Shown here: piece after piece, positions 1-29,600 of the stretch
How the letters are laid out: every line of letters begins with the position of its first letter
Position numbering within the stretch: position 1 is the stretch's first letter
Source: Brugia malayi
Lineage: Eukaryota; Nematoda; Chromadorea; Rhabditida; Onchocercidae
DNA length: 64,000 nt
Direction: 5' to 3'
Assembly (NCBI RefSeq): GCF_000002995.4
Contig: NW_025062479.1
Location: 1,251,221-1,315,220 of the forward strand
Notes under the pieces: model-generated
Told to the model about the DNA's origin: nothing
Database searches by the model: none
The model's input: the letters and a program-made list of their open reading frames with translations, nothing else
Position numbers and translations under genes: made by a program

Positions 1-1
1 A

Positions 2-853
2 CGTGGATATCCAAAATTAATATTAAGCGATAATGTAAGCCAATTTCAACTGGTATTCAAAACCATTATGGAAGAAAACGCTAATTTTTTGGCGACAAAG
101 GGTATGGTATGGCAAAATACTACACCAAGAGCACCATGGAGTGGTGGTGTATATGAAAGACTTATAGGACTCACAAAAAGGGCATTAAGAAGAGCAATAG
201 GAAGAAAACTTCTAAAGGAAAGAGAATTAATAACATTAATAGTTGAAATAGAAGGAATCCTTAATACTCGTCCATTAACTTATGTAGGGTTTGACGACTA
301 CAGAATCATACGCTCAATTGATTTTATATCACCTATCGCCTCATTAGATCTACCAATCAATTATGATAGTGATCAAGACGAATATACTCCTTATACAATA
401 AAGACTAAAGATAAACTAGTCAAGTATTGGATCAGTACTCATATCACATTAAATGTCTTTTGGAAGTTGTGGAAAGAAGAATACCTTATAAGTCTTAGAG
501 AACGTACACAAAGAGAATTAGCATCACCTAGAATAGTGGAAAAAAGAATACCACATGAAAATGAGATAGTATTATTAAATGAAGGAGAAATACCTCGTGA
601 TGAATGGAAATTAGGAAAGATAATAAAAATTAAACGAGGATGGGATGGAAAAATAAGAAGCGCAACAATAGAATCACCAACTGGAAAACAAATTGACCGA
701 TCAATAAATATGCTTTATCCTATGGAAATAGATGCTGCTGAAGATATAGAAGACAAAGTGGAAGATAAACCGGAAGAATCATTGCTAGACGAACCAGAAG
801 TGCTAAAAAATTACAAACTACGGTCGATTCAAAGGATAAGTCTAATCTTTTGA
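2..853 (+). CDS. BEL/Pao pol fragment: integrase core end plus C-terminal DUF5641-type domain
   Basis: The frame is open from base 2, so the true start is upstream. Integrase inserts retrotransposon cDNA into the genome. The second catalytic Asp is visible in LSDNVSQF near the start, and the catalytic Glu region in APWSGGVYERLIGLTK, as in BEL/Pao integrases. A basic C-terminal domain typical of this family follows, with tryptophans around WKLGKIIKIKRGWDGKIR, then an acidic tail. The stop is at 851-853. No internal stop was found, so this part is fairly young or conserved. The integrase zinc-binding domain and reverse transcriptase would be upstream. Family assignment rests on recognisable motifs, not a search. 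Confidence 0.88.
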   Translation, partial: RGYPKLILSDNVSQFQLVFKTIMEENANFLATKGMVWQNTTPRAPWSGGVYERLIGLTKRALRRAIGRKLLKERELITLIVEIEGILNTRPLTYVGFDDYRIIRSIDFISPIASLDLPINYDSDQDEYTPYTIKTKDKLVKYWISTHITLNVFWKLWKEEYLISLRERTQRELASPRIVEKRIPHENEIVLLNEGEIPRDEWKLGKIIKIKRGWDGKIRSATIESPTGKQIDRSINMLYPMEIDAAEDIEDKVEDKPEESLLDEPEVLKNYKLRSIQRISLIF

Positions 854-1089
854 TAAAAACTTTATCATTGATAACGATGATGTCGTTAATACCAAGACAG
901 GTATTAACAGCTGTAATTGAATTTCTGGAGTACCCTTTAATATTCCTGAAAATGGAATTGTGAAGAAATTATTAACAAAGATGCTACATATCACAAAGTG
1001 GATGTGTACACACGCATCCATGTAAGAAAAACAGCTATAAAATGTAACAACATTACACGGACTTTTTTTTTTTAGAATATTACTATGCA

Positions 1090-2328
1090 CGAAAGCTTTT
1101 TTTAGAATATCACTATCTGTAGTATCAGACCATACGTCTACTACTGCAACTTCCTCACAATTCTGCAGATATTTAAATGTTCGAAAACAAATGAATGGAA
1201 TTGGACTAATTCAATCTTCTCCTAATCAATGGATAACGAATAAGGAAATACAATACTCCTATGGATGTTTAGGAGTCAACTGTCAATCAACATCAAATTT
1301 CATATTAACCCAAGGAGAAATTCTCCTATACGATGGAAGAGGATTAGTCTCTAACCTTAACGATCCTTAACGATATAAAGGATTGTTTGACACAAAAGGG
1401 GGAATGTATAACAAATACTAACATTATCATATGGAATAACAACGATACAACCAATCATTGTTTGTATCGAAAGATCGGAAGATCTAAGGCTACAAAGTAT
1501 AACAAACACTTCATCATCGACGAGCTACAAGCATCGCTTATAATTAATGAAAACCCCCATATATTAAACATCAAAAATTGTTGATTCACCTCTCCACTTT
1601 TAATGCAAGGTGATATAGTTATTGAGGTAGACGTTGAAGATGATTCGAACTCTACTACAAAATTCAAACGAAGGATTATAAATAAACTATTAATGATGGA
1701 AAAGTTTCCTGACAAAAAGTTCGATCCTGAAAACGTAAAACTTCAATACCTTTTCGATTCACAAGAATTCATTCAACAACTCAAACAAACGCATCAAAGA
1801 AGTTGCCAAAACAGAAATAACTTATTACTGTTGATCAAATGGTTATCAATCAACAACCCTACACTTTCCGCGAAACTAATAATTCAAAGAAACGATGTGA
1901 TAGCTAAAAGAATTAACGGAAATTTGATGGTGGCTCCTTGCAAATCAGAACGACCGACAATCGAAAATATCGAATTCAAAAGAGATTTAATAAGTAAGTT
2001 TGAAATTGAAACAATTAACGCAGAATTAGAAATCCTGACTCAAAACCACGAAACAATCAATTCAATACCACATCAAATGAAGAATGAATTCTTTTGGCAA
2101 GAAATTTCTGAAGAAGGAGAAAAAATTATTGAACAAATGGAAAGGAAATTTAACGAAATTGTTCTACCGATAGAAGAAGAATTTGAAGACGTGATGATAA
2201 CACATTGGAAATTGATTTTTGTCTGTATAATTATCGTGACAATATTAACTATTTTAGTTATTATTAAGTGGAAATTTAAATTAATTCAATCTCTCCTTTG
2301 TAGTACTCCAAAACAAAGTTCAAATTAA
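1090..2328 (+). pseudogene. env-like glycoprotein gene of the BEL/Pao element, interrupted
   Basis: Between pol and the 3' LTR lies a region with open stretches in more than one frame, broken by stops near 1368 and 1581. Cys-containing segments such as YGCLGVNC occur near 1260-1285. The last open stretch (1603-2328) ends with a long helical region, a hydrophobic membrane segment (about 2209-2269, rich in Ile, Val and Leu) and a short basic tail of about 20 residues. That is the layout of a class of envelope proteins with a C-terminal anchor. Nematode BEL/Pao elements such as Cer7 and Tas are known to carry env-like genes. Stops and frame changes make this copy non-functional. The name is inferred from position and the anchor. 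Confidence 0.6.
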
Positions 2329-2482
2329 ACTACTATCATTACTCTCGCTATGGAATCATCACATACTCAATTCCTAACTAAAGAAGAAATCCCACCCATT
2401 AAACTCCATACATTTAGCTATATACCTCAAAATCACTCTCTCAAAATTACATCTTAAAACAATTTCTCTCCCGCTTTGGGTG

Positions 2483-2996
2483 TGTCGCGAATTATAATTT
2501 CGCGAAAACTTCTAACCAATTTTATAATATTTTATAATATCATAAATCATCTCTCCTTTTTAAATTGTAAACAATCTTACGTTTCAAAAACAATCTCTTC
2601 ATAAATTTGGCTTCTTAAGATTTATTACTCATGTTATTTTATGTGAAATTAGCCCTTATCATAATCTCTTATTTTTAAATTCCTTGTAAACACTACCAAT
2701 CCCTCTTCACTTTAATCTCTTCTTTGTAAACACTTCAAATTCTTCACACATGTGATTTTTATCTTAGACACACCCAATCCTCACTCATATAAATTCAATT
2801 CTAATAAACAAAAGGATTCATTGTCATTATTGTCAACTATTACTCTGATAACCAACCTCAATTTCCTCTTTTTATTATAAATTTCCTTTTTTATTGCTCA
2901 GATTATTAATAATACGTTTTCGTAAAAATAAAGATTTATTAATCTTACTGCTGTATTACAATTATTCGAGTATCCATCGACAAACCTTTCACGAGA
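2483..2996 (+). repeat. 3' LTR of the BEL/Pao element (LTR family A, short form)
   Basis: It begins TGTCGCGAATTATAATTTCG and shares long stretches with the LTR at 4356, for example TTTGGCTTCTTAAGATTTAT and the segment CACCCAATCCTCACTCATAT. The right end (CCTTTCACGAGA) is a decayed version of CCTTTCGCGACA seen at 5952-5963. It is about 0.5 kb, against 1.6 kb for the copies in the palindrome, so it lacks their SL1-containing insert. The exact right border is uncertain by about 10 bp. Confidence 0.75.
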
Positions 2997-4355
2997 GTCT
3001 TCTCATTTACTCTTCTCATGATATAAGAAAAATATCATCAGAAATGATAAATATTTAGCCCACAGTATCATTTTTTATGACAAGAAACTATATTGTAATA
3101 TAGCTAAACTTTAATTTCTGTATGAAAAAGGCTCATTAAACATGCTGGAAAAATAAGTAAAATGTGAATTGGGTTTTGTTGCTAATATCACTAAGAAGCA
3201 AAGTTATATAAAATATAATTAAAAGAACTAAACCCAGGACTGTTCGTTATAACAATAAACAGCCACTGGTACATAACATTTAGGAAACTTATTTTGTTAA
3301 AATAGTACACAGTTATTTTGTTTAGTTTACTCCTTAGTTCAAAAGTTGGTAATATTTACAGCAAAAAATTTAAGTACTTCAAAACAATAAAAATTCTCCA
3401 ATAACTTACACTGTAAGCCATCTAATGATGCACTCATTAGCTGGTAAAATTTTAATATCTTCATTTGTTTCATTAATTGTTCTACAATATTTTGAATAAC
3501 AAATGAATATGATCATTTAAATTGTGCATATAATGAATGCATCAAAGCTAATCAAACTTCGGTGTTACATTCGCAGCCAACTTATTAGCTTAAAATCTAA
3601 ATAAGCGATGAATGTACCTGAAATGAAGAAATTAATCAAATTACGACTGTGTGATACCTCACCAGAAAACGTTGTTTTTAAACAAGGTTCTACTTAACAT
3701 AAACCAAGACAAGCACAGATATTGAAAAAGCATTTATTATTTCAAACGGTAGAGAAGCAGTCGATATTTTTCAGTGCAATTCAAAGTTTATGAAAAATTC
3801 TCAACACCAATAACTTCAATATTTATGTCGTAAAATCTCATCTTGAGTAACTAGCTTTCAAAAATGAATAAATCACTGCTACCTGTAAACATGCACGTAT
3901 GAATCTGTATCACTTACTGTATATGGCGATATGATTTCCGATACGGTCCAGTTCGTTGCAAATCACTAACACCGGATGGATCAGTTGCACAAAGAAAGTG
4001 AACAATAGCACATGCTCACAACCACTACAATTTCGAACTAACTTCTTTAACACTTCTCTTAGTCATTATTATTCAAGCCAAGAAGTGAAATTTGATGAAA
4101 AAGAAAAAAAAATTCCATGGAGAAAAAATAAAATTTGTCAGACAATGCCCGTTGATTTGAAGCATTAGATGTTCTCAAATCCACAGCATGAATGGTCGAA
4201 ATCAAATCTTTTTCCAAATGGAATGTTTCTAAAAGATCGTAATTCCAAGCATAATAATGAATCAGAGTTTAAGGAATTATTAAAATTTCAAAAAAAAAAA
4301 AAGACGAAAATCTTACCATATGCTCTTTTTTGGATGGAATCCTAGTTTTACCACC
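2997..4355. other. Intergenic spacer between two LTR structures
   Basis: AT-rich DNA of about 1.36 kb. The open frames present are short, lack codon structure and match no family I recognise. I see no LTR, tRNA or exon series here. Confidence 0.5.
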
Positions 4356-4788
4356 TGTCGCGAATTATAATTTCGCGAAAACTTTGACCAAAATAATAAG
4401 ATAAATAAAAAAATAAGGTTAAAAGAAGAACTATTAAAAGTAATCAATCATTTTTAAATTGTAAACAATCTTACGGCATCATAAATCATCTCTCCATAAA
4501 TTTGGCTTCTTAAGATTTATTACTCATGTGATTTTATGTGAAATTAGCCCCTATCATAATTTCTTATTTTAAATTCCTTGTAAACACTCCCAACCCCTAT
4601 GTAAAAGCAAATTTAGAATTTCTTTCTTAATGCCCTGTTTCCATGTGAAACAAAATAGGTTTTCTTTCTTGATAGTTCAGATCGTTGACTTCTTTGTCTT
4701 CGATACTGATAGATTCTCGAATCTGTACTGGTACCGTTCTGTGTACGTGTACTGTGGGAGTCTTCGTAAAACACTTTATTATTCAAAC

Positions 4789-4810
4789 CTCAAACTTGGG
4801 TAATTAAACC
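4789..4810 (-). other. Exact nematode SL1 spliced-leader sequence, copy 1
   Basis: The minus strand reads GGTTTAATTACCC followed by AAGTTTGAG, identical to the conserved 22-nt SL1. The next bases are GTTTGAATAATAAAG, not the SL RNA body, so it is not an obvious SL RNA gene. It lies inside LTR A in antisense orientation. Confidence 0.93.
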
Positions 4811-5325
4811 ACAGATTAACATTAAAAATTATACAACATTACAATAATGAATTGATAAATAACACACAAATGTAACTTAATTATAAAACATTTAAAGATA
4901 TAAGCAAGCTAGACACCTCACAATCAAGCCATACCAAACAAGGAACTATAATGAATGGCTTTATAAGGAAGAAAATTGGGAGGGATTTTATGAATGCTAA
5001 GGTTACAAAGCGGATTAAAATCACTTAAAACACTAGCCTTTGTTCATTACGTTATAGCTTCCCATTGTGGCGACACCCTCACATATGTGATTTTATCATA
5101 TACACACTTAACCTTCTACATGTATGATCTTATTGTAAACACTTCAAAATTCCTCACATATGTGATTTTATTATAGACACGCCCAATCCTCACCCATATA
5201 AATGCAATCTTGATAAACAAGAGTTTATTGTCGACTATAACCTTCATAATAAAACTCTATTTCCTTCAATTTTATAAATTCACATATGTGATTTTATATG
5301 TGATTTTATTATAGATTATTCAAAC

Positions 5326-5347
5326 CTCAAACTTGGGTAATTAAACC
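5326..5347 (-). other. Exact SL1 sequence, copy 2
   Basis: Same 22 nt as copy 1, in the second unit of the LTR duplication. Sequence upstream of SL1 is shared with copy 1. Downstream only about 12 nt (GTTTGAATAAT) are shared before the copies differ. Confidence 0.93.
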
Positions 5348-5971
5348 ACAGATTAACACTAAAAATTATACAACATTACAATAATGAATTGATAAATAAC
5401 ACACAAATGTAACTTAATTATAAAACATTTAAAGATATAAGCAAGCTAGACACCTCACAATCAAGCCATACCAAACAAGGAACTATAATGAATGGCTTTA
5501 TAAGGAAGAAAATTGGAAGGGATTTTATTGAATGCTAAGGTTACAAAGCGGATTAAAGTCACTTAAAACAATAGCCTTTGTTCATTACGTTATAGCTTCG
5601 CCATTGTGGCGACACCCTCACATATGTGATTTTATTATAGACACGCCCAATCCTCACCCATGTGATTTTATCATAGGCACGCCCAATCCCCACTCATATA
5701 AATGCAATCTTGATAAACAAGAGTTTATTGTCGACTATAACCTTCATAATAAAACTCTATTTCCTTCAATTTTATAAATTCTATTTCTACTGATCAGATT
5801 ACTGTTTTGTAAGAATAAAAAATTACAATAATTTCTCTGCTATATTATAAACAACAGCGTATTTCACCTTTTACTATCTTTAACGCTCCGAGCGGAACAC
5901 AACAATCAACGTAAGTCCATTTAACTTTTATATTTCACGAATTAAAGACAACCTTTCGCGACAAAATTTTT

Positions 5972-5989
5972 TGGTGCCAAGAGCCGGGA
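5972..5989 (+). other. Primer-binding site A (left arm)
   Basis: TGGTGCCAAGAGCCGGGA begins 8 nt after the end of LTR A. The TGG start and position fit complementarity to a tRNA 3' end (CCA), the primer for minus-strand cDNA. I do not assign the tRNA species. Confidence 0.75.
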
Positions 5990-6028
5990 TTGTATCCTTT
6001 TCCTTGCTCAGGTTTGGTAATTATAGGT

Positions 6029-6813
6029 TTAATATTGATTTGAGAGTGAATGTTGGCAGTTTCTAATCTGCTCATTCACATTAACTAAGTTTGTCAAAAA
6101 GTTTCTTAATTTGAGAATTGACCAATGCATATCCTTTTTCTTTCGTCTATATATTTTATTTGATATCCATGATGGTAATTTACTCTCGATCAAAATTTCG
6201 ATATTTGAATGTTCGAGGCTTTCTCCTAAAGCTTCTCGTTCTATTTTCTCAATAGTTCCAATCCATTCTTGTTCATTTCTATTAATTGACTGGAGCTCAT
6301 TGTATAGTAATGTCGTTTTCCTTTGAGGCATGAGTACAAATAATTCAGTTTTTGGACTTCTGGAATTGCTTGTGTGTGGACTGTTGCGTTAAAACTGCTC
6401 CAAAATTGTCGCCATTGTCTAGCGTCTCCATCGAAAGTAGGGAGCGATAAATGAGGAAGATTTACATTAATATTTGAAGGAATAAATTTTACCTCTTCTT
6501 TTGCCTGTTTGCTTGTCAACTCCTTTGAGAGTTGCGTTAAGTTTTGGTCAGCTTCATCCTTGTGCATTATTAGTGTTATTATCGCTCCCCTTCCTTCGTG
6601 CAATAATTGAAATATTCTTTGGTCGCCTTCTGTTACTGCTTTGTATTTTTCTTCTTCTTCTCTTCTTTTCATTGTGACGATTTGTTGAGTGTATGTGAAC
6701 CATTTATCATTGATAGAATTAAGCGTAGTTACGCATAATTGGATTCCTCGAAGTTTATCTTCGAATAATTTTTTTCTTATTATATAAAAATCTTCTTTTT
6801 CTTCTATTGTCAT
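6029..6813 (-). pseudogene. BEL/Pao gag fragment (left arm, mirror of 7908-8692)
   Basis: Reads from 6813 down to 6241 in one frame and continues in another frame to 6029. It is identical in translation to the right-arm copy, where the domain description is given. It runs head-on into LTR A and its PBS, an arrangement that cannot produce a normal gag-pol. Confidence 0.85.
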
Positions 6814-6918
6814 ACTTGATTCTGGAGATTTGATCTCCAGTTAATTTATTTCTTTAAGAAGATTGACTAACTTTTCTTTTGCCGGTTAAAGGCTTGCAAT
6901 AATGTTGCTTGACATGAT

Positions 6919-6936
6919 TCCCGGCTCGTGGCACCA
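6919..6936 (-). other. Primer-binding site B (left arm)
   Basis: The minus strand reads TGGTGCCACGAGCCGGGA, 5 nt after an LTR end CCACGACA. It differs from PBS A at one position (C for A). It faces PBS A, about 0.95 kb away. Confidence 0.75.
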
Positions 6937-6941
6937 AATTT

Positions 6942-7061
6942 TGTCGTGGAAAATTTGATCGTTTAATTACTAATTTTGGGAGAGGTTTTGATCGCAGGGA
7001 GATTCGTTGGATGTGTATACATACGTGAGATAACAGAGAAATAAACCAATTTCTTTACTAG
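6942..7061 (-). repeat. LTR family B, 3' portion (left arm, minus copy)
   Basis: Minus-strand LTR end with GCGATCAAAACCTCTCCCAA and the terminus CCACGACA, next to PBS B. A second, slightly diverged copy in opposite orientation lies at 7165-7277, so a small inverted repeat is nested in the arm. Confidence 0.7.
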
Positions 7062-7164
7062 CAGAAGTGACAGGACAATACGTTGATGGAGAACAATTGA
7101 AATTGAATTCGTCTGGTTCTTGATAACAAATTACACACACACACATTCTTTTAACAAGGATAAT

Positions 7165-7277
7165 AAAGAAATTGGTTTATTTCTCTGTTACCCCACGTAT
7201 TTACACATCCAACAAATCTTCCTGCGATCAAAATCTCTCCCAAAATTGATAATTAAACGATCAAATCTTCCACGACA
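7165..7277 (+). repeat. LTR family B, 3' portion (left arm, plus copy)
   Basis: Resembles the mirror of 6942-7061 with scattered substitutions (ACCCCACGTATTTACAC against ATCTCACGTATGTATACAC). Its last ~44 bp, including the CCACGACA terminus, lie in the unique spacer. The mirrored copy on the right lacks them. Confidence 0.7.
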
Positions 7278-7487
7278 ACATACACTAGAATATTATAGTA
7301 GGCACCCGTCACAATGTCATTGTAAAACCTATTGTTAAAGTAACTCATTATTATATCTAAACAATTTATACTTTGTACAAAAATGTCTAATTATAAACCA
7401 CTCGTCTAATTATAAAACACGTCTTAACACATATAATGTAAGATATAATTGCTGTATAAGGGTCACTCTTGTTAAAAGAATTTAAGG
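7234..7487. other. Asymmetric spacer of the palindrome
   Basis: About 254 bp that do not mirror each other. The left part finishes LTR B. The rest is AT-rich sequence without a recognisable gene. The right end carries CTTGTTAAAAGAAT (7468-7481), also present in the right arm at 7563-7576, a possible footprint of the rearrangement. Confidence 0.8.
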
Positions 7488-7556
7488 TTTTGATCGCAGG
7501 AAGATTTGTTGGATGTGTAAATACGTGGGGTAACAGAGAAATAAACCAATTTCTTT
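7488..7556 (-). repeat. LTR family B fragment, truncated (right arm, minus copy)
   Basis: Mirror of 7165-7233. It stops at CCTGCGATCAAAACC, where the spacer begins, so the LTR terminus is missing on this side. Confidence 0.65.
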
Positions 7557-7659
7557 ATTATCCTTGTTAAAAGAATGTGTGTGTGTGTAATTTGTTATCA
7601 AGAACCAGACGAATTCAATTTCAATTGTTCTCCATCAACGTATTGTCCTGTCACTTCTG

Positions 7660-7779
7660 CTAGTAAAGAAATTGGTTTATTTCTCTGTTATCTCACGTAT
7701 GTATACACATCCAACGAATCTCCCTGCGATCAAAACCTCTCCCAAAATTAGTAATTAAACGATCAAATTTTCCACGACA
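7660..7779 (+). repeat. LTR family B, 3' portion (right arm, plus copy)
   Basis: Ends in CCACGACA at 7779, then 5 nt, then PBS B. Mirror of 6942-7061. Confidence 0.7.
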
Positions 7780-7784
7780 AAATT

Positions 7785-7802
7785 TGGTGCCACGAGCCGG
7801 GA
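7785..7802 (+). other. Primer-binding site B (right arm)
   Basis: TGGTGCCACGAGCCGGGA just after the LTR B terminus. Mirror of 6919-6936. The gag start codon follows about 105 nt downstream, the normal LTR-PBS-gag order. Confidence 0.75.
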
Positions 7803-7907
7803 ATCATGTCAAGCAACATTATTGCAAGCCTTTAACCGGCAAAAGAAAAGTTAGTCAATCTTCTTAAAGAAATAAATTAACTGGAGATCAAATCTCCAGA
7901 ATCAAGT

Positions 7908-8692
7908 ATGACAATAGAAGAAAAAGAAGATTTTTATATAATAAGAAAAAAATTATTCGAAGATAAACTTCGAGGAATCCAATTATGCGTAACTACGCTT
8001 AATTCTATCAATGATAAATGGTTCACATACACTCAACAAATCGTCACAATGAAAAGAAGAGAAGAAGAAGAAAAATACAAAGCAGTAACAGAAGGCGACC
8101 AAAGAATATTTCAATTATTGCACGAAGGAAGGGGAGCGATAATAACACTAATAATGCACAAGGATGAAGCTGACCAAAACTTAACGCAACTCTCAAAGGA
8201 GTTGACAAGCAAACAGGCAAAAGAAGAGGTAAAATTTATTCCTTCAAATATTAATGTAAATCTTCCTCATTTATCGCTCCCTACTTTCGATGGAGACGCT
8301 AGACAATGGCGACAATTTTGGAGCAGTTTTAACGCAACAGTCCACACACAAGCAATTCCAGAAGTCCAAAAACTGAATTATTTGTACTCATGCCTCAAAG
8401 GAAAACGACATTACTATACAATGAGCTCCAGTCAATTAATAGAAATGAACAAGAATGGATTGGAACTATTGAGAAAATAGAACGAGAAGCTTTAGGAGAA
8501 AGCCTCGAACATTCAAATATCGAAATTTTGATCGAGAGTAAATTACCATCATGGATATCAAATAAAATATATAGACGAAAGAAAAAGGATATGCATTGGT
8601 CAATTCTCAAATTAAGAAACTTTTTGACAAACTTAGTTAATGTGAATGAGCAGATTAGAAACTGCCAACATTCACTCTCAAATCAATATTAA
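7908..8692 (+). pseudogene. BEL/Pao gag, truncated and frameshifted (right arm)
   Basis: Starts with ATG at 7908 after LTR B and PBS B. The first frame runs 190 residues to 8480 and includes LPTFDGDARQWRQFW, the signature of the DUF1759-type gag region of BEL/Pao elements. It is followed by a conserved NYLYSCLKGK stretch. The domain then continues in the +2 frame (about 8390-8692, with LLYNELQSINRNEQEWIGTI). A small deletion or frameshift near 8400-8420 therefore broke the gene. No zinc knuckle, protease or pol follows: the reading frame ends at 8692 and the DNA runs into PBS A and LTR A in reverse. Gag would form the capsid in an intact element; here it is a remnant. Confidence 0.85.
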
Positions 8693-8731
8693 ACCTATAA
8701 TTACCAAACCTGAGCAAGGAAAAGGATACAA

Positions 8732-8749
8732 TCCCGGCTCTTGGCACCA
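8732..8749 (-). other. Primer-binding site A (right arm)
   Basis: Mirror of 5972-5989, next to the LTR A end at 8758. Confidence 0.75.
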
Positions 8750-9373
8750 AAAAATTTTGTCGCGAAAGGTTGTCTTTAATTCGTGAAATATAAAAGTTAA
8801 ATGGACTTACGTTGATTGTTGTGTTCCGCTCGGAGCGTTAAAGATAGTAAAAGGTGAAATACGCTGTTGTTTATAATATAGCAGAGAAATTATTGTAATT
8901 TTTTATTCTTACAAAACAGTAATCTGATCAGTAGAAATAGAATTTATAAAATTGAAGGAAATAGAGTTTTATTATGAAGGTTATAGTCGACAATAAACTC
9001 TTGTTTATCAAGATTGCATTTATATGAGTGGGGATTGGGCGTGCCTATGATAAAATCACATGGGTGAGGATTGGGCGTGTCTATAATAAAATCACATATG
9101 TGAGGGTGTCGCCACAATGGCGAAGCTATAACGTAATGAACAAAGGCTATTGTTTTAAGTGACTTTAATCCGCTTTGTAACCTTAGCATTCAATAAAATC
9201 CCTTCCAATTTTCTTCCTTATAAAGCCATTCATTATAGTTCCTTGTTTGGTATGGCTTGATTGTGAGGTGTCTAGCTTGCTTATATCTTTAAATGTTTTA
9301 TAATTAAGTTACATTTGTGTGTTATTTATCAATTCATTATTGTAATGTTGTATAATTTTTAGTGTTAATCTGT

Positions 9374-9395
9374 GGTTTAATTACCCAAGTTTGAG
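9374..9395 (+). other. Exact SL1 sequence, copy 3 (mirror of copy 2)
   Basis: Reads GGTTTAATTACCC then AAGTTTGAG on the plus strand, inside the inverted LTR A. Confidence 0.93.
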
Positions 9396-9910
9396 GTTTG
9401 AATAATCTATAATAAAATCACATATAAAATCACATATGTGAATTTATAAAATTGAAGGAAATAGAGTTTTATTATGAAGGTTATAGTCGACAATAAACTC
9501 TTGTTTATCAAGATTGCATTTATATGGGTGAGGATTGGGCGTGTCTATAATAAAATCACATATGTGAGGAATTTTGAAGTGTTTACAATAAGATCATACA
9601 TGTAGAAGGTTAAGTGTGTATATGATAAAATCACATATGTGAGGGTGTCGCCACAATGGGAAGCTATAACGTAATGAACAAAGGCTAGTGTTTTAAGTGA
9701 TTTTAATCCGCTTTGTAACCTTAGCATTCATAAAATCCCTCCCAATTTTCTTCCTTATAAAGCCATTCATTATAGTTCCTTGTTTGGTATGGCTTGATTG
9801 TGAGGTGTCTAGCTTGCTTATATCTTTAAATGTTTTATAATTAAGTTACATTTGTGTGTTATTTATCAATTCATTATTGTAATGTTGTATAATTTTTAAT
9901 GTTAATCTGT

Positions 9911-9932
9911 GGTTTAATTACCCAAGTTTGAG
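9911..9932 (+). other. Exact SL1 sequence, copy 4 (mirror of copy 1)
   Basis: Exact 22 nt, followed by GTTTGAATAATAAAGTG and about 200 nt that are not found after copies 2 and 3. Confidence 0.93.
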
Positions 9933-10340
9933 GTTTGAATAATAAAGTGTTTTACGAAGACTCCCACAGTACACGTACACAGAACGGTACCAGTACAGAT
10001 TCGAGAATCTATCAGTATCGAAGACAAAGAAGTCAACGATCTGAACTATCAAGAAAGAAAACCTATTTTGTTTCACATGGAAACAGGGCATTAAGAAAGA
10101 AATTCTAAATTTGCTTTTACATAGGGGTTGGGAGTGTTTACAAGGAATTTAAAATAAGAAATTATGATAGGGGCTAATTTCACATAAAATCACATGAGTA
10201 ATAAATCTTAAGAAGCCAAATTTATGGAGAGATGATTTATGATGCCGTAAGATTGTTTACAATTTAAAAATGATTGATTACTTTTAAGTTTTTCTTTATA
10301 TTAACCTTATTATTTTGGTTAGAATTTATAATTCGCTACA

Positions 10341-12247
10341 CTATCACTAGCGACAACATTTTGTGCATGATCACAACAATTAGTGTTGATATTATACACT
10401 AAGCCTTCCTAACAAAAGAATAAATGTTGATTACTGTTGACGCAGAGGACAAATTTTCTTGAACAACCTTTTGACATTACCCAATGAATCCATCGCCGTA
10501 TTTCCATTGTTTGAGTGCTTAGAAATTAAGGAATCAATCAATAATTATATTATTATAGCCAAAAGAAGAAAATAGGTGGTATAGTGAATGCACTTACGAA
10601 TTGAATGATACGATGGTTGAGCAGTGATAGAGGTTGTTTCCAGCGATAGAGGACAATGTAGTGGAAGAGCTACTAACGAGATCAGTTCCTTTACAAGATG
10701 CAATATATTCTTTCTGGTCACAAAATCCTATTTCGAGATTGAAAACTAATGCATCCTGGCATACAATCCGGTTATGAAATGTAAAAATGCTAATGTGATC
10801 ATTATGGTCCAGTTCTTTTCTCGTTAATTTCATATGTCATACTATTTCATGTTTGTTATTAATTCATTCCTGGCTTACAAACTACCTTATATCTTGCCAA
10901 GTAGATCTTACACAGGTATGCATAGACTAGACTGTTAAAGGACTTCCAAGGTCAAATGGTGTATAAGCATTGGTTAATGATAAGTTCCTGTACGTTCATG
11001 ATAGTTGAATCCTTATTTATTGTTCATTAAACTTTTACCGCAAATGCAACTAGTATATGACGCAGGTCTCCGCTACCTTTGTTCAGTTATGAAATCAGTA
11101 ATGAACAACAAATCATTCCATTCAATTTATGGTAATCTGGTTGGAGTATTAACAGTTCAACCAAAAATTTCAAATGATTTAATGGCAAATTAATTATAAT
11201 AAAATTATTTGTGTTAAACTTTTGCAAAACGATACTTTCAAAATGGTCACAAATTTTTCGAACGACTTTAATTTCATATTTATTTCAATAGAGGCACCAG
11301 TTTCCATTTACATTATACAATTTCCTTTAGCGCTTCTTCTAGCAAAGTCACTGCCAAGCATCAAAACATGTTATAAATACCGGAAGTCGTGCGAACACGT
11401 TAAAAGAGATGTAAGATCCAAATGTTTCAAATTACCGACACTTCTATTTGAAATCAGAATTTGTTTAAATGCACAAGTTTGCTGATATAATTTTGATGAG
11501 AAATATATTGTATGAAATGATAAGATAGTTCGAATCAATTCTTAAAGATATTGCACATTATATTGGCTTACTAAAACGATGCATAAAATTTCGAGACGAA
11601 TTTTTTATGTCGATGTTTCCACTAATTTCTAATTATAAAACCCTTTTTCTTTTTTAAATCATTGTCATCATTCAATTACTACTTCCATATTACGAGGAAT
11701 CATATCAGTAATAATTCGTAGAAATGTGATCAAAAAAGCACTCAGAAACTATAATTTGCAACATTAATTATCCAAAAATTCTCGTCAATTTAGATAACCC
11801 AACTCTTTACAAAATGTTCACAACCAACGTTACTGCCATGACGTCCGAGGGATTTGACGTGACGATCCTCTCACCAACAATAAATGCAATATGTAAAAGG
11901 AAATGAAAGCTATACAGAAAGAATAGTAAGCTAAAAAGATTCACGAAATCATTTATTCATATTTTATGTTACAACTACCTTCGTTCACTTTAACCTTCTT
12001 TACAAAGAGTCGTAAAAAACTTCCTATTACAATAATTTATTGGAGCAAAACTGATCCGTAAACAGCTGAATCAGTTCTCTCAGGGCGAAATGACTAAATT
12101 CATTACTTCCTCATACAATCTTCCTTCAGTGCACACAGACTATACCCGAAAGGAAAAGGAAAGATACATTAGTAAGTGAAATTTGAAAGAATTTTTCATG
12201 GTGCGGAAAGTCATGATGCATTCTCTATTTTTGAGGTGCATATGACT
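10341..12247. other. Intergenic DNA right of the palindrome
   Basis: AT-rich, with short chance reading frames on both strands. No exon series, tRNA or LTR seen. Confidence 0.45.
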
Positions 12248-26691: not shown

Positions 26692-29600
26692 TTACGTAGT
26701 GGATGATACACAAGATAATGATGATGATGTTGATGATGATGATGAAGATGATGATAATGACGATGATGATGACTGTGGTGATGATTGCAACACCGATGTT
26801 GATGTGGATGATGGTACTGGTGGCGGAGGTGATAATGATAATGTTGTTTGCACAGCAACTGCAGTAGCAGTTCCAAATCTTTGTTGTCGTTTTGATCGCC
26901 GTGGTAATGATTTTTTAAGCATCAAATCACTGTTTGGAAAAACAGCATAAGCTTTCCGCCGACCGCTATATAATCGATTACGACATGATGGTGGCGTACT
27001 TGGTGGAGTAGTTTCAGGTAAGGGTGGTGGCACGTTATTCAGAATACGTTTCAGATTTGGTGGTTCACGTTTTATTGATACCAAATTTGGTAATTTGGAT
27101 GCAGTAGATGAAATGGCATTTTCCATTAATGCATTCGCACCATTTTGTCGATCATAAATTGCTTTGGATAAATCAGTAGATAAAAAAGGTTTTGGATTAA
27201 GCCGTTGTGTTGTTGTCACTAAGGTTACTCGAGATGGTGATGTGGTAGTAGGTATCCTAGAAATTTGTACAACTTTAGTGACTGGTCGTGGCATCAAATT
27301 GTTGACTTTATTTGGTATTATTGTACATTGCCGGACTTTTTGATGACAGGAATTCGGTTGCATGTTTTCATTTTCTTTTCTTTTTCTTTCTGACTCATTC
27401 TCATTCCACTTTCCATCCTTATCCGTTTTCCGTATTTGCTCTGATTCTTGTTCCTGATCTTGAGTTAATACTTTTTGATTTTGAACATCTTCATCACTCA
27501 TCGAGTCACATCCAGAATCCACTGAATTTAGAGATTTTGGTGAAAGCTCATCAATACGTTCATTCATTCGACTTGGTGGTCGAGGTATTTCTAAATATTC
27601 ATCGCTTTCGCTATCTTCTGAAATGGTTGTTAGAGTCGGAACATGTCGTTTCATCCGAATACGATCCTTGGCTATATCAATCATCTTCCGTAGTTCGTAT
27701 ACAAATTGCACAGCTAACACCGGGGGATTAGCCATTAGCTCAGGTTCGAAGAAATCTGCAATAATTATTTTAATCAAAATTGAAGTGTAATGTTAAATCA
27801 ACATTTCAGCATGCCATAGTTTATGTTTCAAATCTCTGAAAGATCCATTTTTCCCATATTTATTGCGATTATTGAAGTATTTAAAAAGAGGAGTTGCAAT
27901 GAAAAATGTATGTAAATTTGTATTAAATAGATCAAATTTCCCAATTTATATCAGCAGAAATACTATTTTAATATTTGTTGCAGGATGCGGGTAAAAATTA
28001 TCACAAAACATTTCAATTTTAAAACTAAATTTCGATTTTAAATTATACATGTAAGAATATGAAAATGACTAAAAAAAAAAAATACCAGCACTAAAGTATA
28101 GTTTCCTCTTCTGTATTCCAACATTTGTTGGACACTGATCAGTTTCATTTTCAAATGTTGGATGTCGTTCAATGCTTGCTTTTATTGAAGCTATTTGCTC
28201 TTGCATATATACCTGAAAAATATGTATTTTCAATAATTTCATATTGTAAATTACAAATATTATTTAAATGTAATGAAAAATCTAAAAGCTAAGAAAAGAA
28301 TTGCCTCTTAAAATTTTTCTTAAATTTTATCACTTAAGTTTTAGGTTTTCAAAGAAAAAAAAAAACTTGAACAAAATCTAAATTAAGAAACTGAAAATGC
28401 AAAGGTAATACAATTATCATTAGACTTATCTCCAACTAATCAAGGTAATCAAAAAAAAAAAAAAAATACAAAATTGATTTTATTATACTAACATAACCAT
28501 TTCTGTCCTAATATTTTATACACATTTATTATTAATTCCTTGATTAATTTGATGACTGGCGATATATAAATTATTTCACATCAGTTAATTTTAATTATTA
28601 ATCATTAAATAATATTATAACAATAATAACAATTATTATCACTATCATTTATAACCTGATAACTGGTAAGTATAACTTATCAGTTTGAAAAAATAAAAAT
28701 GAACATACCTGTTGCTGTTTCATATGATAGAGGAATTGCATTTGCATCGTTGAGACGAGTTTACTTTTTTCCTTTTTCCAACATACTTTCCATAATGCAA
28801 TCCCACCAAATAATGTTATGCCAAGCAATGTTGTAAGTAATACGCATATGATTAATTCAACTCGATTCCATTGCATATCATTAAAACGATGAGTCAAATT
28901 AGCATTCACTAAAAATCTCTTTTTAATTTGAATTTTTTCATTTTTCAAATTAGCTTCTATTTTTTATTTAATGCTAACATTGGTTATATTTACTATGCTA
29001 TATATTATTTAACATAATTGGCAATAGTTTGAAAAGTATTTTATAATCTTATCTACCACATTATTTTTATTTCATTCATTTACATTCACTACTTACAAGA
29101 AAAATTAAATTGCTTCAATTTAATCCGATAAAAAGATAAACAATTATAAATTCTATTCCATTTCCTTTTATCAATCATTCAAATTATCAATAAAAATTTT
29201 ACCATGTATGCCAGCAATTCGAAATGCAATGCAATATAATTCAGAAATAGCATTGTTGCAGAATATTTTTAGCTGTATAATACTGCCTTCCATTCTTTTA
29301 GCATCTGTTTCGCTTCCTATCCACTAGAAAAAAAAATGGAAAATTTAAAAATTTTTCATTAAAAAATGATTTTCTATTTTTTCATCCAAAATATTTTCCA
29401 TTTAAAGCTGTTAAAACTGGGAATAAGTGAAGCAAAAAAAAAAAAGAAAAAAGCACTATTTTTTTGAACTAACAAAAATATTATTTACCAAAAATGATTA
29501 CTAAATGGTTTGAAGTAAATGTTAATTGAAGGATTAGTTAATATATAGTTTAATTAATTTAATTATTAGGATAAATTTATTTGCTGCTCAACAAACAAGC

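What the first reader, a model, noticed from the sequence alone, without database searches (positions are those of the whole stretch)
4434..10287. Nearly perfect 5.9-kb palindrome made from retrotransposon parts
Left and right halves mirror each other with no net indel: coordinates of matched features always sum to 14721, and all blocks compared are identical. Arms are about 2.8 kb with a ~254-bp spacer. Such arms are unstable and rarely survive unless recent or homogenised. A transcript through it would fold into a long double-stranded RNA, a possible source of small RNAs.
Basis: seen in the sequence. Interest (0 to 1): 0.88.

Follow-up and report, generated by a model that had tools for sequence, protein, structure and literature searches.

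The report
Self-copying retrotransposon palindrome on worm X
In the X chromosome of the filarial worm Brugia malayi, a 6-kb insertion built from broken Pao retrotransposons forms a mirror image whose two halves are identical over 2,800 bases, apparently because one half was copied onto the other long after the pieces landed there, and further such mirrors lie on the same chromosome.

Summary
The palindrome is in the assembly as described: 4434-7233 and 7488-10287 are identical over 2,800 bp, spacer 254 bp. The interval 4356-10341 is absent from a paralogous site at C139:932277. It consists of BEL/Pao LTR, primer-site and gag pieces plus an SL1-bearing repeat. Just outside the perfect arms the LTR tips are homologous but diverged (6/53 substitutions plus indels). 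Arm gag differs at 1/887 bases from an old neighbouring Pao element whose LTRs differ at 34/452; the likeness stops abruptly (8/55 beyond). So arm identity is younger than the insertions: DNA-level copying (gene conversion or template-switch repair) rather than fresh cDNA. A second X palindrome (4.7-kb arms, TSD ACCTA, own LTRs 11/257 diverged) shows the same pattern; a third was sampled at 4.24 Mb. Without reads, assembly error is not excluded. A hairpin-RNA trigger for Pao silencing is the boldest open reading, untested.

The parts
1..2994 (+). 3' part of the upstream BEL/Pao element 'P1' (its 5' LTR begins near C139:1246353, about 4.9 kb left of the window); open frame 1585-2328 ends in a hydrophobic stretch (env-like by position and by eye, no Pfam hit); 3' LTR aligned over 2483-2994
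   Evidence: LTR pair aligned (34 substitutions in 452 aligned bases, 16 gaps); Peptidase_A17, and RVT_1 below its cut-off, in the part left of the window; ORF, no Pfam family
4351..4355 (+). left copy of a possible 5-bp target-site duplication, CCACC
   Evidence: boundary fixed by the empty-site paralogue C139:932277; right copy CTATC agrees at 3 of 5
4356..10341 (.). the whole inserted interval (5,986 bp), TGTCGCG...CGCTACA, absent from the paralogous site
4356..4433 (+). left outer tip: 5' end of LTR-A, diverged from the right tip
   Evidence: 47 matches, 6 substitutions, 26 gap columns
4434..7233 (.). left arm of the perfect inverted repeat (2,800 bp)
7234..7487 (.). spacer (254 bp): end of an LTR-B 3' fragment to 7277, about 37 bp unassigned, then 5' part of an LTR-B from about 7315 to 7484, then the first 3 bp of the near-match to the left arm
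7488..10287 (.). right arm of the perfect inverted repeat (2,800 bp)
10288..10341 (-). right outer tip: inverted 5' end of LTR-A, diverged from the left tip
10342..10346 (+). right copy of the possible target-site duplication, CTATC (two C/T differences from CCACC)
4356..5966 (+). LTR-A, lengthened to about 1.6 kb by nested repeats (P1's two LTRs of this kind span 471 and 512 bp); mirror copy 8755-10341 on the - strand
4600..5075 (-). interspersed repeat of about 476 bp carrying an exact SL1 22-mer at 4789-4810; partial second copy 5315-5614 with SL1 at 5326-5347; mirrored SL1 at 9374-9395 and 9911-9932
   Evidence: (38 further places among the 40 candidates scored of 179)
5972..5989 (+). primer-binding-site-like sequence TGGTGCCAAGAGCCGGGA fused directly to the 3' end of inverted gag; mirror 8732-8749 on the - strand (recognised by eye; not compared with a tRNA)
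   Evidence: read; junction pattern found at only 4 places in the genome with up to 3 mismatches
5984..6948 (-). gag fragment (left arm); open frame 6241-6840
7773..8737 (+). gag fragment (right arm); open frame 7881-8480, DUF1759; 7773-8660 is nearly identical to P1 gag
   Evidence: (1 substitution in 887 aligned bases, 8 in 55 beyond)
6942..7158 (-). 3' part of LTR-B in the left arm, next to an inverted LTR-B 3' fragment 7159-7277 (head-to-head LTRs)
7315..7779 (+). LTR-B of the right arm: own 5' part (to 7484), inverted LTR fragment 7485-7562, then 3' part 7563-7779; CTTGTTAAAAGAAT occurs on both sides of the inverted fragment

Best explanation
Pieces of BEL/Pao retrotransposons, in inverted order, occupy one interval of the X chromosome of Brugia malayi. 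Long after they arrived, one arm was copied onto the other at the DNA level. The same kind of copying passed gag between the arms and the old Pao element P1, whose gag lies about 9 kb from that of the left arm. Shown: arm identity, diverged tips, abrupt end of identity with P1, an empty site, and a second X palindrome whose arms are more alike than its own LTR pair. Inferred: the direction (left to right), the repair pathway, and whether it happened once or repeatedly.
For: Arms 2,800/2,800 identical, while the adjoining homologous tips differ at 6 of 53 aligned bases plus 26 gap columns. The arms share nested repeats and the gag|PBS junction. P1 gag versus arm gag: 1 of 887 substitutions, then 8 of 55 beyond 8660 (Fisher p=7e-10, treating sites as independent), whereas P1's own LTRs differ at 34 of 452; the other gag copies scored are at most 91% identical to the arm (40 of 61 candidates scored). 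Inner edge: the right LTR-B carries an inverted LTR fragment between two copies of CTTGTTAAAAGAAT, as if copying overran the homology. Palindrome 2 (C139:2832842-2843477): TSD ACCTA on both sides, no substitution between its arms from 2833245 to 2837963 and one 1-bp gap in a G-run, yet its left LTR(-) and right LTR(-) remnant differ at 11 of 257, and perfect identity ends about 21 bp inside the inward-facing LTRs. A third mirrored pair on X at sum 8485034: 400/400, and a 300-bp piece matched at 100% with one base fewer on the partner.
Against: All from one assembly (PacBio RSII, HGAP, manual grafting; PMC7181701); no reads could be examined. The tip homology tested alone is modest: in a free local alignment of the two flanks 8 of 500 shuffles reach the observed score, so its weight comes from lying directly at the arm ends. 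The TSD of this insertion matches at only 3 of 5 bases. The inner junction has no homology, unlike a textbook conversion tract. The LTR-divergence argument assumes that the two LTRs of an element were identical at insertion. A single late inverted duplication would look the same as ongoing homogenisation.
Confidence: 0.6

Rival explanations
1. Assembly or library artefact: a fold-back read or a hairpin path in the assembly graph made one arm appear twice.
For: Perfect identity; RSII-era reads; the assembly was manually grafted (PMC7181701 section 17). Reads cannot be inspected here.
Against: Both outer edges are precise: LTR-end termini, an empty-site paralogue, diverged tips. Three separate X loci show near-identical mirrored arms, two of them with a 1-base difference. 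Palindrome 2 has an exact 5-bp TSD. The right inner edge has its own LTR-B 5' part.
Confidence: 0.13
2. A fresh reverse-transcription by-product: plus-strand DNA misprimed on a primer-binding site or snapped back, gave a palindromic cDNA with two U3 ends, and integrase inserted it.
For: The gag|PBS(-) junction lies at CCCGG and recurs at two other loci; one of them (C135:13881945-13884093) is a 2.1-kb unit with inverted LTRs and exact TSD AGGAA. So inverted-LTR units do integrate, and this may explain the first layer of the window element.
Against: Diverged tips beside perfect arms, near-identity with the old neighbour P1, and the 4.3% LTR divergence in palindrome 2 all put arm identity later than insertion.
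Confidence: 0.12
3. A one-off inverted duplication by replication template switching (break-induced replication) between inverted LTRs, with no later homogenisation.
For: The non-homologous inner junction with a short flanking duplication; no need for repeated conversion.
Against: The separate, sharp tract shared with P1 needs at least one further copying event involving the same locus.
Confidence: 0.15

Closest known systems
Mammalian X/Y palindromes kept identical by arm-to-arm gene conversion (PMC8981503, PMC5997626: search listing with start of abstract only)
   Same: Sex-linked inverted repeats with near-identical arms held alike by conversion
   Different: The mouse ones are described as >10 kb and carrying testis-expressed gene families; these arms hold only retrotransposon and repeat sequence; conservation between species untested here
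Mu killer of maize (PMC3440606: search listing with start of abstract only)
   Same: Partial inverted duplication of a transposon that could yield a hairpin RNA of several kb
   Different: Mu killer is reported to silence its target; here neither transcript nor small RNA was tested, and the source is an LTR retrotransposon in an animal
BEL/Pao LTR retrotransposons of B. malayi (PMC7181701: sections 7 and 17, and part 1 of section 6, read; PF03564, PF05380)
   Same: LTRs, primer site and gag of this superfamily; Pao elements are reported enriched on the ND part of X and on Y contigs
   Different: LTRs inverted instead of direct, no polymerase found inside, primer site fused to inverted gag

Membership tests
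Gene-conversion-maintained sex-chromosome palindrome | Inverted arms >99% identical with small spacer | tested here: met
   2,800/2,800, spacer 254 bp
Gene-conversion-maintained sex-chromosome palindrome | Lies on a sex chromosome outside the pseudoautosomal region | tested here: met
   C139 = 24,943,668 bp = published X; palindrome at 1.26 Mb, PAR starts at 22.3 Mb
Gene-conversion-maintained sex-chromosome palindrome | Arm identity younger than the structure | tested here: met
   diverged tips, P1 tract, palindrome 2 LTR pair; indirect, one assembly
Gene-conversion-maintained sex-chromosome palindrome | Arms carry genes, conserved between species | tested here: inconclusive
   The only open frame of 120 aa or more in the arms is the truncated gag; no related species' genome could be searched
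BEL/Pao element | Pao-type gag/pol | tested here: inconclusive
   DUF1759 in arm gag; Peptidase_A17 found only in the neighbour P1; the arms have gag alone
BEL/Pao element | Direct LTRs at both ends | tested here: not met
   LTR-A copies are inverted; so it is derived from such elements, not an intact one
BEL/Pao element | Short (about 5 bp, recalled) target-site duplication | tested here: inconclusive
   CCACC/CTATC here; exact 5 bp at palindrome 2 and at the C135 inverted-LTR unit
Hairpin-RNA silencing locus (Mu killer type) | Inverted transposon copy able to fold as RNA | tested here: met
   stem around the centre, MFE -967.9 kcal/mol for 1,322 nt, as any palindrome would give
Hairpin-RNA silencing locus (Mu killer type) | Transcript and Dicer siRNAs that act on the element in trans | not testable with these tools
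   no RNA data held

The most novel reading that the evidence does not exclude
Pao palindromes on the Brugia X are a natural 'Mu killer': inward-facing LTR-A copies drive a hairpin RNA whose Dicer products start the RdRP/22G silencing of BEL/Pao elements in an animal without piRNAs, and gene conversion with neighbouring elements keeps the hairpin matched to its targets. This would name a source for the double-stranded RNA that Sarkies et al. 2015 inferred behind the 22-23-nt RNAs of B. malayi and left open between two routes (PMC4323106, passages read).
Probability: 0.1. Interest if true: 0.88.

Novelty: new variant of a known kind. Interest (0 to 1): 0.55.

Why it matters
If the copying is real, a nematode X homogenises inverted repeats made of transposon debris, so near-identical sex-chromosome palindromes need not be kept by selection on genes. 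It also warns that retrotransposon ages on this X can be reset by copying. And it supplies named loci at which the open question of the dsRNA source for transposon silencing in piRNA-less nematodes can be tested with small-RNA data.

Tried and rejected
Considered and rejected: (1) a simple fresh cDNA palindrome. (2) The inverted gag pair at C135:462-471 kb as another palindrome: it looks like a short element with two LTRs in one orientation, nested in the pol of a larger one, and its arms are 98.7% alike. (3) tRNA or known RNA genes in the window: none at the default thresholds. (4) A host-protein search to name the organism: not answered; the chromosome lengths named it instead. (5) The C137 inverted gag pair 29 kb apart: a 500-bp probe chosen between the two gag copies occurs four times at 100% in both orientations on chromosome 3, but not at the mirror place predicted, so it is an amplified region of another kind. 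(6) X-specificity: of the 40 scored hits, 12 are on X, 12 on the four autosomes and 16 on small contigs; six of the X hits lie in the three palindromes and none of the autosomal ones in a perfect close pair, but hits come in pairs and only the best 40 of 53 candidates were scored, so I make no claim.

Searches found no paper. Judged by the titles and abstract starts listed, none is about Pao palindromes in Brugia. The search that named Brugia malayi and Pao together timed out, and most subscription papers are not held, so absence from print is not shown.
Full report
WHERE IT IS. The window is G000:C139:1251221-1315220. The lengths of C139, C135, C136, C137 and C138 equal those printed for chromosomes X, 1, 2, 3 and 4 of Brugia malayi, five of five (PMC7181701 Table 1). 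The locus lies at 1.26 Mb on X, outside the pseudoautosomal region that starts at 22.3 Mb; that paper reports most of X as single-copy in males.

THE OBSERVATION. With mirror sum 14721, 4434-7233 and 7488-10287 agree at 2,800 of 2,800 bases; 7234 is a T/C mismatch followed by two matches. The tool's figure of 2,803 nt and 248 bp includes that mismatch. There are no Ns in the window.

ONE INTERVAL. The left flank (4113-4355) and the right flank (10345-10774) match adjoining stretches of a paralogous site on the same chromosome at C139:932277, which lacks what lies between (89% and 92%). The inserted interval is therefore 4356-10341, TGTCGCG...CGCTACA. The flanking 5-mers CCACC and CTATC could be a decayed target-site duplication (3 of 5), which alone is weak. 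Whether everything inside came in one step is not known.

ANATOMY. From outside in, each arm holds: an LTR of the kind called here LTR-A, with its 5' end outward; a primer-site-like sequence; then gag in the opposite direction; a second primer-site-like sequence; and the 3' part of another LTR kind, LTR-B. The LTR-B pieces meet head to head around the spacer. gag carries DUF1759, which with Peptidase_A17 in the neighbouring element places the source in BEL/Pao. LTR-A is stretched to 1.6 kb by repeats of about 476 bp, found at 38 further places among the 40 candidates scored (a lower bound). The direct fusion of gag to an inverted primer site occurs at four places in the genome: both arms, C135:13883449 and C136:783143. 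At C135 it lies in a 2.1-kb unit with inverted LTRs (8 substitutions in 427 aligned bases) and exact duplication AGGAA; the C136 unit is truncated at its left end and I saw no duplication. So units with inverted LTRs do integrate, and the window element resembles two such units joined head to head.

WHY THE ARMS ARE YOUNGER THAN THE INSERTION. First, homology does not end where identity ends. Tips 4356-4433 and 10288-10341 are the same LTR end, but with 6 substitutions in 53 aligned bases and 26 gap columns. A shuffle control for free local alignment of the two flanks reached the observed score in 8 of 500 cases, so the argument rests on position as well as score. Second, the old Pao element P1, which ends in the first 3 kb of the window, has LTRs differing at 34 of 452 aligned bases. 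Its gag nevertheless differs from the arm gag at 1 of 887 aligned bases up to 8660, then at 8 of 55 beyond. P1 and the arms also both lack about 96 bp at which most of the other long gag hits are split into two blocks. Copying between P1 and the arms thus postdates P1's insertion, if P1's LTRs were identical at the start; its direction is open. Third, the right LTR-B keeps its own 5' part but has an inverted LTR fragment between two copies of CTTGTTAAAAGAAT, which fits copying that ran from left to right and overran the homology. That polarity is inference.

A SECOND AND A THIRD CASE. Hits with mirrored coordinates led to C139:2832842-2843477, a 10.6-kb unit flanked by ACCTA on both sides. Its arms (about 4.7 kb, spacer 358 bp) have no substitution between 2833245 and 2837963 and one 1-bp difference in a G-run; four mismatches lie in the outermost bases of the aligned block. 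The left LTR and the right LTR remnant of that insertion differ at 11 of 257, and the inward-facing LTRs differ after their first 21 bp (22 substitutions and 64 gap columns against 145 matches over the aligned part). At C139 4.24 Mb, two probes found their mirror partners at 100%, one of them a base shorter; the other copies that span most of these probes reach 93% and 95%, and one 213-bp partial copy 97%. Only 0.7 kb of that third pair was read, and its spacer (up to about 5.5 kb) contains other repeats. Not all near-identical inverted copies are on X: a 500-bp piece of chromosome 3 has four identical copies in both orientations.

MECHANISM. The best-supported account is copying between inverted, already diverged pieces: strand invasion at the outer LTR tip, synthesis inward, and joining at the centre. 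Repeated gene conversion and one late template switch are not distinguished by these data, though the P1 tract requires at least one extra event. A fresh reverse-transcription palindrome is disfavoured for the arms but may explain the inverted-LTR building block. An assembly fold-back is disfavoured by the exact outer edges and by recurrence, but no reads were seen, and the assembly method (PacBio RSII, HGAP, manual grafting; PMC7181701 section 17) leaves room for it.

RNA. The centre folds into one long stem (1,322 nt, -967.9 kcal/mol; no shuffle control at that length, and the result follows from the palindrome). Both LTR-A copies point inward. Of 933 22-mers of arm gag, 817 occur in P1 and 37-75 in each of the other 13 gag loci compared (14 loci were compared in all), so small RNAs from the arms could meet many Pao copies. 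Sarkies et al. (PMC4323106, passages read) report that nematodes outside clade V, B. malayi among them, lack piRNAs, that 22G RNAs target transposons in B. malayi with a BEL/PAO element as the example shown, and that 22-23-nt monophosphate RNAs there are likely made by Dicer from dsRNA. Whether this locus is transcribed is unknown.

NOVELTY. Sex-chromosome palindromes with arm-to-arm conversion are known in mammals and, as palindromic repeats, in willow (PMC8981503, PMC7023750; listing and start of abstract only). Here the arms consist of retrotransposon debris in a nematode, and I saw no report of it in the searches named under Tried and rejected. I rate it a new variant of a known kind.

Noticed in passing
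window 4789-4810, 5326-5347, 9374-9395, 9911-9932; L003-L008: Exact SL1 spliced-leader 22-mers lie inside the 476-bp interspersed repeat; in 6 of 6 other copies examined, of 38 found, SL1 (0-2 mismatches) sits at the same internal place with similar flanks. The published idea that SL1 copies near Pao came from trans-spliced Pao RNA (PMC7181701 section 7) may instead reflect this repeat.
   Followed up: partly
L039 (C135:13881945-13884093) and L038 (C136, about 782.6-784.7 kb): Short units of LTR, primer site, gag, inverted primer site, inverted LTR; the first has an exact 5-bp duplication AGGAA, the second is truncated on its left. The shared junction is at CCCGG, which gag and the primer site have in common.
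   Followed up: partly
C139:2832842-2843477 (L079-L083): Second Pao palindrome on X, 4.7-kb arms, exact TSD ACCTA; its right LTR is a fold-back of two LTR parts in opposite orientation.
   Followed up: yes
C139:4236901-4248132 (L085, L086): Third mirrored, near-identical Pao pair on X, sampled only at a few points.
   Followed up: partly
C137:4709148-4788398: A 500-bp stretch occurs four times at 100%, in both orientations, on chromosome 3: an amplified region or an assembly duplication.
   Followed up: no
window 4113-10774 and C139:931988-932722: A diverged (about 89-92%) duplication of the flanking sequence about 0.32 Mb away on X, without the insertion.
   Followed up: partly
window 26692-27792 (-): A 366-residue open frame rich in serine and proline with no Pfam match up to E 0.1 and no solved-structure match up to E 0.1.
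   Followed up: no
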